From positions 1-39,827 of the forward strand of contig DYSA01000002.1 in the NCBI GenBank assembly GCA_020726425.1: 39,827 bases of DNA, in the 5' to 3' direction. Both the position numbers and the translations under genes were made by a program. Numbering within the stretch: the first letter of the stretch is position 1; the number at the start of each line of letters is the position of its first letter. Source of the DNA: Fibrobacter succinogenes. GTDB lineage: Bacteria; Fibrobacterota; Chitinivibrionia; Chitinivibrionales; Chitinivibrionaceae. Positions 1 through 39,827 of this stretch are shown here, one piece after another. The notes beneath the pieces were generated by a model. That model did not search any database, was not told the DNA's origin, and saw only the letters and a list, made by a program, of their open reading frames with translations.

Positions 1-46
1 ACCCATCATTTTGAGGCTTTGCCCCGTTTTCAGTTACATTCTGCAA

Positions 47-123
47 GCGTTGTTGCTTACATAGGTTAATATAATATCGTGCAATCGTGACTGCATAAGA
101 AAATATTAAAAGTTCCTATTTTT
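47..123 (-). promoter_or_regulatory. Early promoter/leader P1 with operator-like palindrome, directed leftwards across the window end toward the 39801 CDS
   Basis: 77 bp nearly identical (2 mismatches) to 13664..13740. Minus strand: TTATGC-N19-TATATTAACCTATGTAAGCAACAACG; spacer contains TGCAGTCACGATTGCA. Confidence 0.7.
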
Positions 124-4209: not shown

Positions 4210-5558
4210 TCTTCGCCGCCTGCTGAATCTTCTGGCTCTTCTGGTTCTTCCTGCATATCTTTATCAAGCAGGCGGGCTGCATCAACATCGTCACTGACTG
4301 AAGTTGTGAAAGAATATCCGCCTTTGAAACGGTTCTCTCTGATCTCTTCAGGCGTTAAAACGTTCATAGATGCGTAAATTTGATCTGTTTCAGCTTGTGC
4401 CTTTCTTGCTTCTGATCCTTCCTTATCCGAAGGAAGCGACAACGGCAGCCAATTGATTTCATAATCATCGGCATCTTTCAGGCCGTAAGCTTTACAGGCA
4501 CAACAAACGCCAATCAGCTTCAAAAGTTCATCTTCCATTTCTTCAACTTGATACGCATTCACCTGTTCATGAAAGTTCCGTGTATCGGCATCGTCTTTTG
4601 CACCAAGGCCGGCGGATTGTGTACCAAGAAGAATTTTTGCAGGAACTCCGTTCACCGCTGCAGCATAGTTGCCGAATCGATCAAGCATATCAGCAAGCCC
4701 GGTGATTGCTGCCGTGTGTGTTGTCCATTCCTCTTCTGAATCGATAATCAAGGCATTGATCATGCTGCGTGAAAGTGCCATGATTTCAACACGCTTCTTA
4801 ATTTCTTCCTCTTGCCCGGTTGCAATGGCATTTGCAAGACCGTTCACTTTCATCACGGGTGTGACGAACTGATTCAAGATCCCTTCAGCGGTTGCATAGG
4901 CGGTGCCCAATCCACGCAAAGAAGAACCGGTTGATCTATAGAGGCTATCACCAAAGCCGTTGTTTTGCATTCTTCGTGATTCTGTCACTTCTTCGCCATC
5001 AAAGAAAAGACAGCGGCTTTCATGAATATCTTTGCTGCCACCATTCCAACGCCAACAAGTAAATATTTCAGGTGTTCCGGCCTTCATTCCGCTTTCGTAA
5101 AACTTTTGAACCTGAATATAATCACGTTCAAATACTTCCGTTCCTTCGATAGAAACGCACGTTTTATAGTTAAGTGGAACTTTCATATCTGTGTTTCCAT
5201 CATTGACATACATCACGACAATTGAACCACCACTTGAACGGGCTTTTGTAAGTGCCTTTCTGAAAACTGAAGGTGCTTTCAGCTTTCTTCTTAAAAGTTT
5301 ATCAAGCTTTGAATCTTCATCGCCTGAGAACTGGCACCATTTCCGGGTTGCGTGTTGTGGAAATAGTCTTGCAGCCCGGCGGCCTATCCCATCGTCACAA
5401 AACAGAACATCAACTTCAGCCTGTGAAAGTGCCGTTTGTTCTGAAACATCGATCTTTGTATTCTTGGTTGCACTTCTTTTGCCACCAAGCCCGGTTAAAA
5501 GGTTCATCCATCCATCAACACGCTGCAACGCATCAAGTACACCGCTTTTGATTGTCAT
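4206..5558 (-). CDS. Phage portal protein, DUF1073-type
   Basis: Sequence style and position between terminase and MuF gene; ALTKARSSGGSIVVMYVNDG...GVPAKILLGTQSAGLGAKDDADTRNFHEQV. Confidence 0.85.
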   Translation of the reverse strand: MTIKSGVLDALQRVDGWMNLLTGLGGKRSATKNTKIDVSEQTALSQAEVDVLFCDDGIGRRAARLFPQHATRKWCQFSGDEDSKLDKLLRRKLKAPSVFRKALTKARSSGGSIVVMYVNDGNTDMKVPLNYKTCVSIEGTEVFERDYIQVQKFYESGMKAGTPEIFTCWRWNGGSKDIHESRCLFFDGEEVTESRRMQNNGFGDSLYRSTGSSLRGLGTAYATAEGILNQFVTPVMKVNGLANAIATGQEEEIKKRVEIMALSRSMINALIIDSEEEWTTHTAAITGLADMLDRFGNYAAAVNGVPAKILLGTQSAGLGAKDDADTRNFHEQVNAYQVEEMEDELLKLIGVCCACKAYGLKDADDYEINWLPLSLPSDKEGSEARKAQAETDQIYASMNVLTPEEIRENRFKGGYSFTTSVSDDVDAARLLDKDMQEEPEEPEDSAGGEE

Positions 5559-5570
5559 TCTTCGATCTCC

Positions 5571-6833
5571 TTACAAAATGTTCATTTTCTTAAACTGAAG
5601 GCCGCCATTCAAGCCCCAACGTGTAAGAATGTAATATCTTTGGCTGTCTTGGCAATGGTCTGAATCCTTAATTGGCTTATCTTCACCACGCAAAGCCGCC
5701 TTTTCATCCCATCTATACAAAAAATACTCTTCGATAGTATGAGTGCATTTTTTTATTATCGCATATTCACCACTTACAAGAACAGAAGCTTGTGCCCTGA
5801 TCCCATCAAGAACCGCATTGTTTGCAGGTTTAACCGGTAAACCTCTACGTTTACAAGTTGCAATGAAAGAAGCTGCTGAAGGGTCAATAAATATCGTGTA
5901 AAGCTTTCGCCGTATATCAGGCTTACGGTTTATGAAATCTTCAAGATCATCGGCAAGCTGTTCATCAGTCTTTTGAATACCTGTTTCACGTCCGCTGTAA
6001 TAATATTCATCTTCGCACCAATACCGAGGCTTTCCATGTGAAAAATCTTGCCGGTTCGATTCACCGAAAAGAAGAAACACCGTTGGGTTCTGAATACCAT
6101 AGTCGATACTTATACAATAGCGTGCAGCATCTTCAGGCGGTTCGTTCAGAACAAACGGTTCAGATTCTTCAAAGAATGGATAAATCATACCTTCGGCAGC
6201 TACCCAAAGACCATCAATCATTCTTTGCCGCCAAACACCGTGATACTTCAGTTTAATATCTTCAACGTAATCAGGATCAAGGTTTGGATTGTCATTCAAA
6301 GTGAACTTGTAATAGTTCATTTTGATCTTATCGCGTTTATCGATGAAATCAGTTTTCACATGGTGCCGCGGGTTGTCCGGGTTCGTTCCCGCAAAACCTT
6401 TTGCACCCTTCGCACTTTGCCTGCCTATGAGTTCCATCAGGAAAGTTTTGTTGATCAGCGTCAATTCATCGGCAAGCCAGCCGCCGCCGGTCATTCCGCG
6501 AAGTGCTTTGTGGCATCCTTCATCTTTGGCACCAAATACAATGCAGTCAATGCCGAACATTCTTACTTTCTGCTGTGAAGGCGTGTATTTGATCGCTTCA
6601 CCATAATGTTCTTCCATTGGCTGAATGATATTACGGTAAATCGATTGTGCAGTAACTCCAACGATTGAAAGAATCCCGTCACCCTGCCAATCGTGTTTGT
6701 CCATTCTCATTATGTATTTGATCCACCGGGCATTCAATCCAACGGTTTTGCCTGATCGAATAGCACCATCAAGAAGATTCATTCTTGCATTTGCATCAGC
6801 CAGAACAAACGCTTGTTTATCGGTTAAGTGCAT
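5571..6833 (-). CDS. terL: Terminase large subunit
   Basis: LLDGAIRSGKTVG Walker A, ...MTGGGWLADELTLINKTFLMELIGR, nuclease-like ISIDYGIQNPTVF and FIDPSAASF. Confidence 0.9.
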   Translation of the reverse strand: MHLTDKQAFVLADANARMNLLDGAIRSGKTVGLNARWIKYIMRMDKHDWQGDGILSIVGVTAQSIYRNIIQPMEEHYGEAIKYTPSQQKVRMFGIDCIVFGAKDEGCHKALRGMTGGGWLADELTLINKTFLMELIGRQSAKGAKGFAGTNPDNPRHHVKTDFIDKRDKIKMNYYKFTLNDNPNLDPDYVEDIKLKYHGVWRQRMIDGLWVAAEGMIYPFFEESEPFVLNEPPEDAARYCISIDYGIQNPTVFLLFGESNRQDFSHGKPRYWCEDEYYYSGRETGIQKTDEQLADDLEDFINRKPDIRRKLYTIFIDPSAASFIATCKRRGLPVKPANNAVLDGIRAQASVLVSGEYAIIKKCTHTIEEYFLYRWDEKAALRGEDKPIKDSDHCQDSQRYYILTRWGLNGGLQFKKMNIL

Positions 6834-7444
6834 CAGCTCCCCCCGTCCGCGTGGCTTATTCCGGGGAAATCATCTTTTGTGAATGATCGGCCTCTTTCGT
6901 CTTGCTCTTGCATCCATGCCGCAATCATTCCGTGCCGGGCACCGTCCGAATTCTCTTGTTCGCCGGCTTTGTAGATTGAACGGTAGTTTTCAGAATCAAG
7001 ATTACACAAAGCGAAGATCACCGCGGTTGCATTTGGTGCATACTGCTTTCTTGTTTCTCTCTTGTAAAGTGTCGTTGTTCCGCTGTCAGGAATGATCTTT
7101 CCTGAAGAATCGGTTTTTTGCCCGGTCGTTTTCTTTTCGGTCACAACGTCCACTGTTTCAAATCCTTCAAGCAGCTTTTTCAGGCCGCGGCGTGCTGCTG
7201 CTTTTATGTTTGATTTGCGTGATTCCTTTCCCCTTTTTATTGCTGCCGTTATCTTGTGTGATACTTCGATAAAAGCCGGCGTTGATTTCTTCGTTGGGTA
7301 ACATCTCGCACGAAACGTTTCATACTTGATACCGCATTCATTGGCAATGTCTCTGAGGTTTTCAGAACCATCAGCAACAGCGTTTTCAATATCTGTATAA
7401 ATCTGTTCATCATTCCAGATTTCAGCTTTAGGATTCGCCATCAT
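6833..7444 (-). CDS. Putative terminase small subunit
   Basis: Immediately upstream of terL; N-terminal HTH-like LRDIANECGIKYETFRARCYPTKK. Confidence 0.6.
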   Translation of the reverse strand: MMANPKAEIWNDEQIYTDIENAVADGSENLRDIANECGIKYETFRARCYPTKKSTPAFIEVSHKITAAIKRGKESRKSNIKAAARRGLKKLLEGFETVDVVTEKKTTGQKTDSSGKIIPDSGTTTLYKRETRKQYAPNATAVIFALCNLDSENYRSIYKAGEQENSDGARHGMIAAWMQEQDERGRSFTKDDFPGISHADGGS

Positions 7445-12420: not shown

Positions 12421-12451
12421 CCTTCAAGGTATTGTTTAAAAAGGAAAATGG

Positions 12452-12532
12452 TGAACTGAAAGGAATCGAACCTTTGCGTATCTCTTCAGGAATCGAACCA
12501 CGAAGAACGCTCTACCTCTGAGCTACAATTCA
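12452..12532 (-). tRNA. tRNA-like element with aberrant enlarged anticodon loop
   Basis: Minus strand: acceptor TGAATTG/CAGTTCA, TA, D-arm GCTC-AGAGGTA-GAGC, stem TTCTTC/GAAGAG with 14-nt loop GTGGTTCGATTCCT, T-arm AAAGG-TTCGATT-CCTTT. Confidence 0.6.
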
Positions 12533-13663: not shown

Positions 13664-13740
13664 GCGTTGTTGCTTACATAGGTTAATATAATATCGTGCA
13701 ATCGTGATTGCATAAGAAAATATAAAAAGTTCCTATTTTT
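13664..13740 (-). promoter_or_regulatory. Early promoter/leader P3 with palindromic operator
   Basis: Spacer contains TGCAATC-AC-GATTGCA (perfect 7-bp arms); same TTATGC-N19-TATATTAACCTATGTAAGCAACAACG frame. Confidence 0.75.
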
Positions 13741-14992: not shown

Positions 14993-15676
14993 TCACGCTT
15001 TCTTTATTCGGTTGTCACGGGCACCGGGAACATCGTAATTCACCTGAATGCCTGCAAGTATTCTGCTGCTGATTTTGTCTTTGTATCTTTCGATTATCTG
15101 AACCGGGGAAAGGTTGCTTGTGATTATCGTTGGCCTTTGTTCTGACCACCGCTGATTCATGATTGCAAAAATCAGTTGATAAACATCAGAACTCATTGCC
15201 TCACTTCCCAAATCATCCAAAAACAAATAGTCACAACGGCTATATTGCAAAGCAATTGTTTCAGCGGTTTCCTTGCTGTCATTGCTGTATGTTCCACGCA
15301 TCGCAATGACCAAGCTGCTTACCTCAACAAATCGCGTTGTTTTCAATGGTGAAACACGCTTAATTCTACGCATCAGCCATGCAGCACTTTCAGTTTTTCC
15401 GGTTCCCGTTATATTCCCATAGATCAAAAGGTTTCCGGCTGACCTATTGTAAGCCTTGATCAGTTCGTGAATATTCGTTTCTGAATAGCTGCTTTCTCTG
15501 AATCGCTTCGGCATTCCGCATCTTTCAAGAACATCTTTGAACGCTTCGGCTTCAGAAATCAACCGTTGCTGCTCTTCCTTTTGTTTCATTTCAAGCTCTT
15601 GTTCTTCAGTAAGCAGAACCATATTACTGAAATTGAGCTGAAAGGTTGCTTTGGGTACTTCCGTTGTTGTTGCCAT
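14993..15676 (-). CDS. DnaC/IstB-like AAA+ ATPase (helicase loader)
   Basis: LLIYGNITGTGKTESAAW Walker A; CDYLFLDDLGSE Walker B; TIITSNLSP. Confidence 0.85.
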   Translation of the reverse strand: MATTTEVPKATFQLNFSNMVLLTEEQELEMKQKEEQQRLISEAEAFKDVLERCGMPKRFRESSYSETNIHELIKAYNRSAGNLLIYGNITGTGKTESAAWLMRRIKRVSPLKTTRFVEVSSLVIAMRGTYSNDSKETAETIALQYSRCDYLFLDDLGSEAMSSDVYQLIFAIMNQRWSEQRPTIITSNLSPVQIIERYKDKISSRILAGIQVNYDVPGARDNRIKKA

Positions 15677-16463
15677 TTTGATTTGTCTCCTTTGCTCTTC
15701 TTGTTCTCATTCTCACACCTTCATCACGCCAATTTGTGAGAAATTGCCGTTGCTTCAGCCAGTTATCAGGCTTGATCAAAAATTCAACCTTGCAGAAAGG
15801 AACATATTCACGCAAAAACGCTTCAAATCCCTGCTTGATCATTTCGATTGAAACTCCCGGTTCTCTTAATGCTATATATGCAGCGTCAATCATTGCCGGC
15901 CTGTTTCCAAGTTGAACCGGGTGCCGTTCTGAAATGAAGTCCGCAACTTCTTCAGCAACCATCCGCAAGCGTTCCTTTTCTATGAATTGCCGATCTTTCG
16001 ACTTATCAAAATCCTGCGTTTCATTTTCTGGTTCATCCTGATCAACTGGTTCTTCTTCAGGTTCCGAAGATTTCTTTGATCTTCTTTCAGCACTTTTCTT
16101 GCCGGCTGCAACTCTCTTTTCACGAATATCGTTCAGCGTTTCCATTCTTCGCATAAGTGAAGGGCTGTAATAATTGCCGTTTTCATCCTTACACAACAGG
16201 CCAACTGAAAGAAGATCGTTCAAGAATTGCTTTCCGCTGATTGCGAGGCCGGGCAATTCCGCCTGCAGTGCGTCTGCAATCCAATCATCGGCGGGGATTG
16301 TGTAACTATCGCTTTCGCGTAGAATCTCAACAACTACCCACCACGCACCATAGGCGGCAATTCCATGTTTCCCGATTATAGCCCGTATCTTTAGATCAGC
16401 ACGGGCACGAATATCATGCGGGAAATAGTAAGCACGTTCGTCTTTTAAAGCCATAATTTTCAA
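15624..16463 (-). CDS. DUF4373-domain replication protein
   Basis: YYFPHDIRARADLKIRAIIGKHGIAAYGAWWVVVEILRESDSYTIP, adjacent to the DnaC-like gene. Confidence 0.75.
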   Translation of the reverse strand: MKIMALKDERAYYFPHDIRARADLKIRAIIGKHGIAAYGAWWVVVEILRESDSYTIPADDWIADALQAELPGLAISGKQFLNDLLSVGLLCKDENGNYYSPSLMRRMETLNDIREKRVAAGKKSAERRSKKSSEPEEEPVDQDEPENETQDFDKSKDRQFIEKERLRMVAEEVADFISERHPVQLGNRPAMIDAAYIALREPGVSIEMIKQGFEAFLREYVPFCKVEFLIKPDNWLKQRQFLTNWRDEGVRMRTRRAKETNQNGNNNGSTQSNLSAQFQ

Positions 16464-17557: not shown

Positions 17558-17616
17558 CGTTGTTGCTTACATAGGTTAATATAGAAAAAGGCAAAGAGAA
17601 AAGCATAAAAAAATAT
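17558..17616 (-). promoter_or_regulatory. Early promoter/leader P4 (no palindrome in spacer)
   Basis: TTATGC-N19-TATATTAACCTATGTAAGCAACAACG-AAGGAGTTTTTATG, leader identical to P2. Confidence 0.7.
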
Positions 17617-36154: not shown

Positions 36155-37300
36155 TTACGCTTTAGGTTTAAAAGAATCGAGTTGTCTCTGATACGCAGAA
36201 GCGTGATCTTCATCGTTGTTCTGTTCAGGCTTGCGAGCCTGTGAACTGTCAGCATTGAAAGTTGACTGTGAATCAGTTGGATTTGCCGGCTGATCATCTT
36301 CAACAATGCTGTCGTGACGTGCTTTGATATAGTCAAGGCTTTTGCCGTCGGCATTGAAGCCGGGGCGTGCTTTGGCGATTACTGCAACCATGATTTCACG
36401 ATCAGGTTTATCAGCGATCAACTTGTATTCATCAGCGTTCATGCGTTTTGAAGCAGAAACAAGAAGTTCAGCACGTGATTTTGCAAGTGCAACAATTTTA
36501 TCTTCACTGTCAGAATTTGCCGCATTTGCTGCAACTTTTTCTTCTGATTTCTGAAGCTTGTCGTTTGCTTCATCAAGTTCAGCTTGCATTTTTTCGCTCT
36601 TCGCCTTCGTGCCGCACGCATCTTTTTCAGCGGCATCAGCCCGGTTGTTGATTGCTGCAATGTGTGATCCAACCAGATCATTCACTTCAACTTCAACACC
36701 GTTGATCATTACTTTCATAGAACCTCCGTCCATGTTTTTATTTTCAGGAAACATTTCATATTCAACTGCAATTGCATCTTGTGAATCGATCCGCAAACTT
36801 GCAACGCTTCCAGCCCTTGCAGCATCGACCAATGCAAGATGGTTGTATCTGATCTTTCGTTGAATCGCATCATAGTTTTGCCCGTTGTAAACTCCGGGCG
36901 TTGGCTCAAGCTCCAAATTGTAACCAAGCGACAATTGCCGCCGGCCTGCATCGATTGAATCAATACCTTGCTTGTGAGTTACGGTGATCGGAATATTCAA
37001 CAACTGATCATCACGGCTTGCATTTTCCCCGGTTGCACCAATTGAAAGAACGTGTGCATTGTCGGAATTCACAAACTGCATAGGGTGAAGATTTGTTACT
37101 GGAATCATTTTCAGAGTTTCGATTGATTCCGGGGCAAACACTTCTTCAGGCAATCTCAATTCACGGCGAATAGTACCATCAGCATTTCTGTATTCAAAAA
37201 TGCCGGTTCTTGTTACTGTCACATTGCCGCGGTAAAAGCCTTCAGGCGTTTTTTCCATCTTCCCGGTAATGAAACTTGTATCGAAACGTGAAATATTCAT
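36155..37300 (-). CDS. DUF2213-like prohead protease/scaffold
   Basis: SFITGKMEKTPEGFYRGNVTVTRTGIFEYRNADGTIRRELRLPEEVF, C-terminal coiled coil; start MNISRFD. Confidence 0.85.
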   Translation of the reverse strand: MNISRFDTSFITGKMEKTPEGFYRGNVTVTRTGIFEYRNADGTIRRELRLPEEVFAPESIETLKMIPVTNLHPMQFVNSDNAHVLSIGATGENASRDDQLLNIPITVTHKQGIDSIDAGRRQLSLGYNLELEPTPGVYNGQNYDAIQRKIRYNHLALVDAARAGSVASLRIDSQDAIAVEYEMFPENKNMDGGSMKVMINGVEVEVNDLVGSHIAAINNRADAAEKDACGTKAKSEKMQAELDEANDKLQKSEEKVAANAANSDSEDKIVALAKSRAELLVSASKRMNADEYKLIADKPDREIMVAVIAKARPGFNADGKSLDYIKARHDSIVEDDQPANPTDSQSTFNADSSQARKPEQNNDEDHASAYQRQLDSFKPKA

Positions 37301-37321
37301 GAAAACCTCTGAAATAGAAAA

Positions 37322-37381
37322 AGGGCTGAAGTGCATTGATTGCCGGGCAACAACTACCGACAACCAACACGCAACAGCCCT
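37322..37381 (-). promoter_or_regulatory. Structured leader with terminator-like arms upstream of the protease gene
   Basis: Minus strand AGGGCTGTTGC ... GCACTTCAGCCCT followed by TTTTTCTATTTC. Confidence 0.45.
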
Positions 37382-37467
37382 CTAAACGTCATTAAGACAC
37401 CCTTGAAGGGTAGGTGTTGAATAGAATTTAAATTTAAATTGCACTTTTTGCAACACAAAGTTTTAAA

Positions 37468-37588
37468 GTTCACAAAATACGCAATGAAAAGTTCAACAAA
37501 CATTCAGCAAAGTTTGAACACTTGCTGAACAAGTGTTCAACAAATTCTGAACAGATGTTCAACAAATGGTCAGCAAAGATTGAAATAT
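37468..37588. repeat. 11-bp phased degenerate repeat array, cluster 1
   Basis: Consecutive 11-mers: gttcaacaaac attcagcaaag tttgaacactt gctgaacaagt gttcaacaaat tctgaacagat gttcaacaaat ggtcagcaaag attgaaatatg. Confidence 0.8.
37514..37540. repeat. Inverted repeat, 11-bp perfect arms
   Basis: TTGAACACTTG-CTGAA-CAAGTGTTCAA. Confidence 0.85.
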
Positions 37589-37870
37589 GTTGAGCATATA
37601 TATAACTTCTCTTTACTTATCTTTTGTTTTCTTGTTTTTGTTCTGGTTTTCTTCGCGTGCGTGCGTGTGACCACGGCGAAAACTTTTTTACGCTGCAGAT
37701 CGAAAGCTTTGTTTTTGATTTTTAGTGTTCAACGGCTTCGAGAATCGAAGAAAACGTGTTCAAAGGTAACTTTACTTTCTGAAATCAAATTGCAGGTGTT
37801 CAAAGCCCTTGTTTTTGATTCGAGGCAAAAACGATTCGATCAACCGTTGTTTTCATTCACTTTTAACAAT

Positions 37871-37936
37871 TGTTCAACACTTGTTTAGTTTTGTTGAACA
37901 CTTGCTGAACACTTGTTCAGCAAGTGTTCAATTTTG
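37871..37936. repeat. 11-bp phased repeat array, cluster 2
   Basis: tgttcaacact tgtttagtttt gttgaacactt gctgaacactt gttcagcaagt gttcaattttg. Confidence 0.75.
37894..37931. repeat. Perfect inverted repeat, 17-bp arms and 4-nt loop
   Basis: TTGAACACTTGCTGAAC-ACTT-GTTCAGCAAGTGTTCAA. Confidence 0.9.
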
Positions 37937-37985
37937 CTATAACAAAAAAAGGCATTTGCTCAATTATGTTCAAGCAAACAAAAAA

Positions 37986-38009
37986 GGCGGCTTCATTTCT
38001 GAAACCGCC
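37986..38009 (-). terminator. Rho-independent terminator
   Basis: Minus strand GGCGGTTTC-AGAAAT-GAAGCCGCC-TTTTTTG. Confidence 0.85.
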
Positions 38010-38019
38010 CTTGAAAAAC

Positions 38020-38601
38020 TCAAAAAAGAAACTTTTTACAGTCCGCCGACCTGAGTATTTGTCTGTGTCGCTGAACCTGTGTCGTTGTTCCCAGATTAAC
38101 GATTCCCTGATTCGTATGCTGAATCTGAGCCGAAAGAATCGCATTCTGCCGAAGAACTTCATTCAACGTTGCCTGAGTTTGTGCCTGCATTTGAGCCTGA
38201 GCCTGAACCTGATTCACATTGGTTGTGATATTAAATTCTGAAGCCTGTGAACGGCGTGTTGCACGCTCTTCGCAAAGTTCATCACGAAGCTGGTTGTTTT
38301 CAGAAGTAAGAATCTGAGTTGAAAGGCGATTTTCAGAAGCAAGAATTGCCGCCTGAGTAGCTGCAAACTGAGCTGCTGTTGAAGCCTCAAGGCCGCAAAG
38401 CTGCTGAGTGATTGCACGTGCATTATTATCAGAGTTCTGAAGGGTTGCAATCAAAGCATTCTGAGTTGCATCTTTTCCAGAAGCAATAACGCTGCTCAAT
38501 CCGACAGTCTGTTCAAGAATTGCGGTTCCAAGCTTCATACCAATTGGCTTACCATCAAAGCCTTCAAGTTCCTTGGATAGATCAAGCTCAACAAGTGCCA
38601 T
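38020..38601 (-). CDS. Gln/Ala-rich coiled-coil protein of unknown function
   Basis: 193 aa; NVNQVQAQAQMQAQTQATLNEVLRQNAILSAQIQ; terminator downstream. Confidence 0.7.
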   Translation of the reverse strand: MALVELDLSKELEGFDGKPIGMKLGTAILEQTVGLSSVIASGKDATQNALIATLQNSDNNARAITQQLCGLEASTAAQFAATQAAILASENRLSTQILTSENNQLRDELCEERATRRSQASEFNITTNVNQVQAQAQMQAQTQATLNEVLRQNAILSAQIQHTNQGIVNLGTTTQVQRHRQILRSADCKKFLF

Positions 38602-39801: not shown

Positions 39802-39827
39802 AAAACACCCATCATTTTGATGCTTTG

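What the first reader, a model, noticed from the sequence alone, without database searches (positions are those of the whole stretch)
37381..38010. Large non-coding island with two helically phased 11-bp repeat arrays and a perfect 17-bp-arm inverted repeat
In an otherwise tightly packed genome, about 600 bp between the Gln-rich gene terminator and the protease gene has no convincing CDS. Cluster 1 reads as consecutive 11-mers around GTTCAACAAAT / GCTGAACAAGT; cluster 2 (37871-37936) keeps the same 11-nt register. GTGTTCAA occurs at 37533, 37725, 37756, 37796 and 37924. The 11-nt period is close to one helical turn, so one protein could load repeatedly on one DNA face. Candidate roles: replication origin iterons, a partition or ParB-like binding site, a packaging site, or a late-operon control region. 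Function is inferred; the repeats are directly visible.
Basis: partly seen in the sequence, partly recalled or inferred. Interest (0 to 1): 0.85.

Follow-up and report, generated by a model that had tools for sequence, protein, structure and literature searches.

The report
Phage replication origin with 11-bp iterons
A 720-base gap in an uncultured bacterial virus carries two clusters of a repeated 9-letter palindrome set one DNA turn apart; the best reading is that this is the virus's DNA replication start site, read by its own initiator protein, whose relatives usually carry such repeats inside their own gene.

Summary
Window 37301-38019 is the only large non-coding gap in a 39.8-kb, probably circular myophage genome. 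It has two 11-nt-phased arrays (37490-37596 and 37862-37931) and a perfect inverted repeat with 18-bp arms. The unit is a 9-bp palindrome, TGYTSARCA, plus a 2-bp spacer.

A genome-wide pattern scan first pointed to function: arrays of the same unit turned up inside or just after genes of Lin1244_N (PF14297, formerly DUF4373) phage initiators. Two PF14297 samples gave 38 non-redundant initiator genes not found through the pattern. Of these, 17 carry 11/21/22-nt-phased arrays, mostly in the linker behind the DNA-binding domain, against 5 of 38 at control lags and 1 of 29 genes of this phage. The window phage encodes a Lin1244_N protein (15624-16454) followed by a DnaC-like helicase loader. Its initiator gene has no array; the island does.

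Best explanation: an iteron-type replication origin, displaced about 21 kb from its initiator gene to just upstream of the head-protease gene. Binding and origin activity are inferred. No close relative of the phage could be examined, because every viral-contig scan failed. Late-operon control is the main rival.

The parts
37301..38019 (.). non-coding island, proposed replication origin
   Evidence: largest inter-gene gap (719 bp; next 172 bp)
37490..37575 (.). iteron cluster 1: eight 9-bp palindromic units at 11-nt steps
37588..37596 (.). extra perfect unit TGTTGAGCA, out of register (21 nt after the last unit of cluster 1)
37595..37654 (-). purine-rich (78% on the - strand), A+T-rich tract with TATATATAT beside cluster 1; candidate DNA unwinding element (a promoter -10 is an alternative)
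   Evidence: only 0.08% of 60-nt windows of the contig are as purine-rich
37726..37805 (.). three single, unphased units (37726, 37757, 37797)
37862..37931 (.). iteron cluster 2: about six units, 11-nt steps with one 21-nt step
37894..37931 (.). perfect inverted repeat, 18-bp arms, 2-nt centre, made of the palindromic units
37983..38012 (-). terminator of the Gln-rich gene
   Evidence: z=-5.5
37314..37381 (-). long hairpin followed by a U-run, about 14 nt before the protease start: terminator- or attenuator-like
   Evidence: -36.4 kcal/mol, z=-7.2
15624..16454 (-). Lin1244_N (PF14297) replication initiator, proposed to bind the iterons
   Evidence: E=1.8e-8; PHROG 2562 replication initiation protein
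14993..15676 (-). DnaC-like helicase loader
   Evidence: PHROG 50, E=2.4e-33
36155..37300 (-). head maturation protease (first gene after the island)
   Evidence: PHROG 530, E=1e-90
38020..38601 (-). Gln-rich protein gene before the island
   Evidence: no relatives found

Best explanation
The island is an iteron-type replication origin. The phage's Lin1244_N initiator (15624-16454) binds the 9-bp palindromes TGYTSARCA, which sit one helical turn apart, so successive copies load on one face of the DNA in two clusters. The complex opens the A+T-rich, purine-biased tract at 37595-37654 and recruits the DnaC-like loader and the host helicase. Relatives of this initiator often carry such iterons in the linker of their own gene; here they lie about 21 kb away, at the front of the head-gene operon. 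Shown: the arrays, the statistics, the initiator and loader genes, the association of phased arrays with this initiator family, and the lack of an array in this phage's own initiator gene. Inferred: binding, melting, helicase loading and origin activity.
For: Arrays are real. A scan of 85,488 genomes for three tandem units gave 17 loci. In two related prophages the array starts within a few bases of the stop of a Lin1244_N gene (L039, L047). In L042 it lies inside a gene with a sub-threshold Lin1244_N match. In L048-L050 it is 73-76% identical over about 90 nt to the linker of a Lin1244_N gene of two of the same three assemblies (L054/L055). Of 38 non-redundant PF14297 genes not found through the pattern, 17 hold 11/21/22-nt-phased arrays (p<0.05; 15 at p<=0.01), against 5 (1) at six control lags and 1 of 29 genes of this phage. 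First sample: 8/21 against 15/131 control ORFs, Fisher p=0.005; second sample 11/22. The strongest window-like tandem units outside the window (scores above 15) are in L054, L056, L057, L094 and L101, all with initiators among the closer ones to the window's (>=50 bits); L094 and L101 were not found through the pattern. The window's own initiator gene has no array (p=0.38; island 0/500) and 12.4-17.7 kb has no other. A purine/A-rich tract lies beside cluster 1. Published parallel: RepA_N plasmids such as pSK41 keep ori in the linker of rep and tolerate its separation (PMC5703833); the RepA_N element PLE has its iterons in non-coding DNA (PMC7145576).
Against: No binding or replication data. 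More than half of the Lin1244_N genes tested show no phased array in the gene. About 10 of the 17 pattern hits lie in unrelated places (e.g. Bifidobacterium, Halomonas), so the motif alone is not diagnostic. The 21-nt arrays of the more distant subfamily have other sequences. No homologous island was available: all viral-contig scans failed. GC-skew gives no clean origin signal. The predicted initiator structure is of low overall confidence (mean pLDDT 56) with no significant PDB fold match. The island also carries terminators and lies at the head operon, which fits a control region too.
Confidence: 0.74

Rival explanations
1. Late-operon control region: a phage repressor or activator coats the two arrays, which flank a promoter (TATATATAT near 37600), and switches the head-gene operon. 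The hairpin with a U-run before the protease is a terminator to be overcome by antitermination.
For: Terminator-like hairpins on both sides on the transcribed strand. The downstream structural operon has no copy of the promoter-like repeat seen four times elsewhere in this phage.
Against: The sigma-70 scan finds no promoter inside the island and no excess in the region scanned. Tandem units occur nowhere else in the contig, not even at the four promoter-like repeats. The same kind of array accompanies initiator genes elsewhere.
Confidence: 0.15
2. Centromere-like stability site, as in plasmid R388 (two sets of five 9-bp repeats spaced by 2 bp, bound by StbA) or R1 parC.
For: Near-identical layout: two clusters of 9-bp units with 2-bp spacers (PMC3098194).
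Against: No ParM-, ParR-, ParA- or StbA-like protein among the proteins scanned. No integrase or plasmid-prophage trait was seen, so there is little need for partition.
Confidence: 0.05
3. DNA packaging (pac) or terminase recognition site.
For: It lies next to head genes.
Against: The terminase genes are at 5571-7444, about 8-9 kb away round the circle; nothing found here links small terminases to such arrays.
Confidence: 0.03

Closest known systems
RepA_N replicons (plasmid pSK41; satellite PLE of Vibrio cholerae)
   Same: Initiator with an N-terminal DNA-binding domain; ori of repeated sites in the linker of the initiator gene (pSK41; a common place in Lin1244_N genes) or in non-coding DNA (PLE, and here)
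   Different: Initiator family is PF14297, not RepA_N PF06970; units are 11 bp apart here; origin about 21 kb from the initiator gene
Bacteriophage lambda ori (in gene O)
   Same: Phage iterons bound by a phage initiator, working with a helicase loader
   Different: Lambda ori lies within gene O (PMC6022878); its iteron size and AT-rich stretch are recalled, not tested here; here the origin lies far from the initiator gene
Plasmid R388 stbDRs / R1 parC
   Same: Two clusters of 9-bp sites with 2-bp spacers (R388, PMC3098194)
   Different: Different sequence; no partner protein of those systems seen; R388 has further copies at other promoters, this phage does not

Membership tests
Iteron-type replication origin | several phased copies of an initiator-size site | tested here: met
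Iteron-type replication origin | A+T-rich unwinding element next to the sites | tested here: inconclusive
   purine-rich, A+T-rich tract 37595-37654 is present; melting not testable
Iteron-type replication origin | replicon encodes an initiator and a loader | tested here: met
   Lin1244_N protein, DnaC-like loader
Iteron-type replication origin | initiator binds the sites | not testable with these tools
   only the family association
Iteron-type replication origin | replication starts here | not testable with these tools
   no read depth or replicon assay; skew inconclusive
RepA_N replicon | PF06970 RepA_N domain | tested here: not met
   Pfam gives only Lin1244_N PF14297 for 15624-16463
RepA_N replicon | ori in the linker of the initiator gene | tested here: not met
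   no array in the window initiator gene, p=0.38
R388 stb / R1 par | StbA or ParM/ParR encoded | tested here: inconclusive
   none among the proteins scanned; some small ORFs not scanned

The most novel reading that the evidence does not exclude
Lin1244_N proteins are a large, unstudied class of phage replication initiators that normally carry their own 11- or 21-bp iterons in their gene. The origin can be moved or copied away from the initiator gene into the head-gene region: here to the front of the head-protease gene, and in an unrelated phage as an extra array inside the head-protease gene (L048/L049).
Probability: 0.45. Interest if true: 0.68.

Novelty: new variant of a known kind. Interest (0 to 1): 0.55.

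Why it matters
A search of the held paper library found no paper naming Lin1244 and only two mentioning DUF4373, both on iron biology by title and abstract. If right, this gives a predicted DNA target and origin for an initiator family found in prophages of Bacteroidales and other bacteria, and a simple rule (phased arrays in the linker) for finding its origins. It also shows an origin separated from its initiator gene and placed at the head operon.

Tried and rejected
Every viral-contig scan was lost to machine errors (cap reached at 56), so no close relatives. Genome-contig search with the protease found none. DNA search of the island in phage and plasmid records: none. Distant protease relatives (31-37% identity) were fetched; no similar 11-nt array was found in them, though some other-period repeats occur, and in L026 the gap before the protease is under 300 bp with no such array. 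Pattern match in a same-order genome (L018): chance. Rfam: only a tRNA. GC skew at third positions changes sign around the island but on few genes; not used. Structure of the initiator: low confidence, no fold match. Arrays elsewhere in the contigs of three initiators without a phased array in the gene: nothing clear. A structured-RNA reading of the island was set aside: the strong folding follows from the palindromic repeats and two terminator-like hairpins.

Full report
What the window is. The window is a whole contig (C426) of a 3.4-Mb genome bin. It is a contractile-tailed phage: terminase, portal, head maturation protease, major head protein, sheath, tape measure, baseplate genes, DnaC-like loader, RecE-like exonuclease, methyltransferase. 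All genes are on the - strand. Its ends share a near-identical 22-nt stretch, and a promoter-like repeat at the left end sits in the right place in front of the gene at the right end, so the genome is probably circularly permuted. No integrase was seen.

The observation. The gap 37301-38019 is 719 bp; the next largest is 172 bp. Lag-11 autocorrelation is z=5.1 over the region, 6.8 in cluster 1 and 5.4 in cluster 2. The unit is a 9-bp palindrome TGYTSARCA plus 2 bp. Cluster 1 has eight units at exact 11-nt steps (37490-37575) and an extra perfect unit at 37588. Cluster 2 has units at 37860 (weak), 37871, 37892, 37903, 37914 and 37925. Because each unit is a palindrome, the perfect 18-bp-arm inverted repeat follows from the array. 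Eight of the eleven perfect 9-mers of the contig are in the island.

Flanks. A terminator of the Gln-rich gene is at 37983-38012 on the - strand (z=-5.5). A second long hairpin followed by a U-run lies at 37314-37381, about 14 nt before the protease start (z=-7.2). Beside cluster 1 lies a purine-rich, A+T-rich tract, 37595-37654.

Finding the partner. DNA similarity searches of the island found nothing. A degenerate pattern for three tandem units was scanned over one genome for each of 85,488 species and gave 17 loci. About ten of them lie in unrelated intergenic or other sequence. The rest point to one protein family. In L039 and L047 the array begins within a few bases of the stop codon of a Lin1244_N gene. 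In L042 it is inside a gene with a weak Lin1244_N match (E=0.003, below cut-off). In L048-L050 (one phage lineage in three assemblies) it lies in a head-protease gene and is 73-76% identical over about 90 nt to the linker of a Lin1244_N gene found in two of those assemblies. L038 lies in a gene that looks like another initiator type, not confirmed by a profile. The window phage encodes a Lin1244_N protein, E=1.8e-8, which PHROGs calls a replication initiation protein.

Systematic test. PF14297 genes were collected from 199 genomes of one order, 169 genomes of the window's own phylum and 201 genomes of another class. For each gene the best match at lags 11, 21 or 22 was compared with local codon shuffles. 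First sample: 8 of 21 genes at p<0.05, against 2 of 21 at control lags and 15 of 131 control ORFs (Fisher p=0.005). Second sample (own phylum plus the other class): 11 of 22 against 3 of 22 (one of the 11, L091, is from the L054 lineage found through the pattern). Non-redundant and without the pattern-derived lineages: 17 of 38, against 5 of 38 at control lags, and 1 of 29 genes of this phage. In the first sample the arrays start mostly at nt 384-521 of the gene, just behind the DNA-binding domain. An A-rich stretch often follows; it produces further peaks at lags 10, 15, 20 and 30. The control genome searches find PF14297 in only 1 of 14 well-known genomes.

Sequence of the units. Scored with a matrix from the window's units, the best tandem triplets outside the window are in L054, L056, L057, L094 and L101, all with initiators at 50 or more bits to the window's. 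L094 and L101 were not found through the pattern. Several other 11-nt arrays (L072, L095, L098, L100) share a GAACA or GGACA core. The 21-nt arrays found inside genes belong mostly to initiators distant from the window's. The window's own initiator gene has no array (p=0.38), while the island has (0 of 500 shuffles).

Reading. The simplest account is that the island holds the iterons of the phage's Lin1244_N initiator and is the replication origin. Shown: arrays, initiator, loader, and the family association. Inferred: binding, opening, loading and initiation. The organisation matches RepA_N plasmids, in which the origin is in the linker of the rep gene and proteins lacking the linker can act on an origin supplied elsewhere (PMC5703833), and the satellite PLE, whose iterons lie in non-coding DNA (PMC7145576). 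The initiator itself is not a RepA_N member by Pfam.

Rivals. Late-operon control is the main one, because of the terminators and the position before the head genes. It does not explain why such arrays accompany initiator genes elsewhere, and tandem units occur at no other site of the phage. The layout resembles R388 stbDRs closely (PMC3098194), but no partition protein was found among those scanned.

Limits. No close relative of the phage was examined, because all viral-contig scans failed. There are no binding data. The predicted structure of the initiator is poor. Fewer than half of the family's genes tested show an in-gene array, so the rule is not universal, or other members keep their origin elsewhere; a search around three such genes found nothing clear.

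Noticed in passing
window 50-69, 1794-1813, 13667-13686, 17560-17579 (- strand): TTAACCTATGTAAGCAACAA occurs four times without mismatch, inside a longer conserved stretch (TTTTATATTTTYTTATGC ... TATATTAACCTATGTAAGCAACAACG), at the start of gene groups; 0.02 expected. Probably a phage-specific promoter or leader.
   Followed up: partly
window 1-22 and 39805-39827: Near-identical 22-nt ends (one mismatch) and a promoter-like repeat correctly placed across the join suggest a circularly permuted complete genome.
   Followed up: partly
window 37314-37381 (-): Strong hairpin with a U-run about 14 nt before the head-protease start codon: a terminator or attenuator at the entrance of the structural operon.
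   Followed up: no
L048 and L049 (L049 about 5360-5500): In another phage lineage an iteron-like array with A-rich tract lies in frame inside the head-protease gene and is 73-76% identical to the linker of a Lin1244_N initiator gene in the same assemblies.
   Followed up: partly
L050 5359-6342: An ORF that starts as head protease and ends as replication initiator, joined at the array: recombination product or assembly chimera.
   Followed up: no
window 12451-12532 (-): A tRNA gene in the phage genome (Rfam RF00005, 43.7 bits).
   Followed up: no
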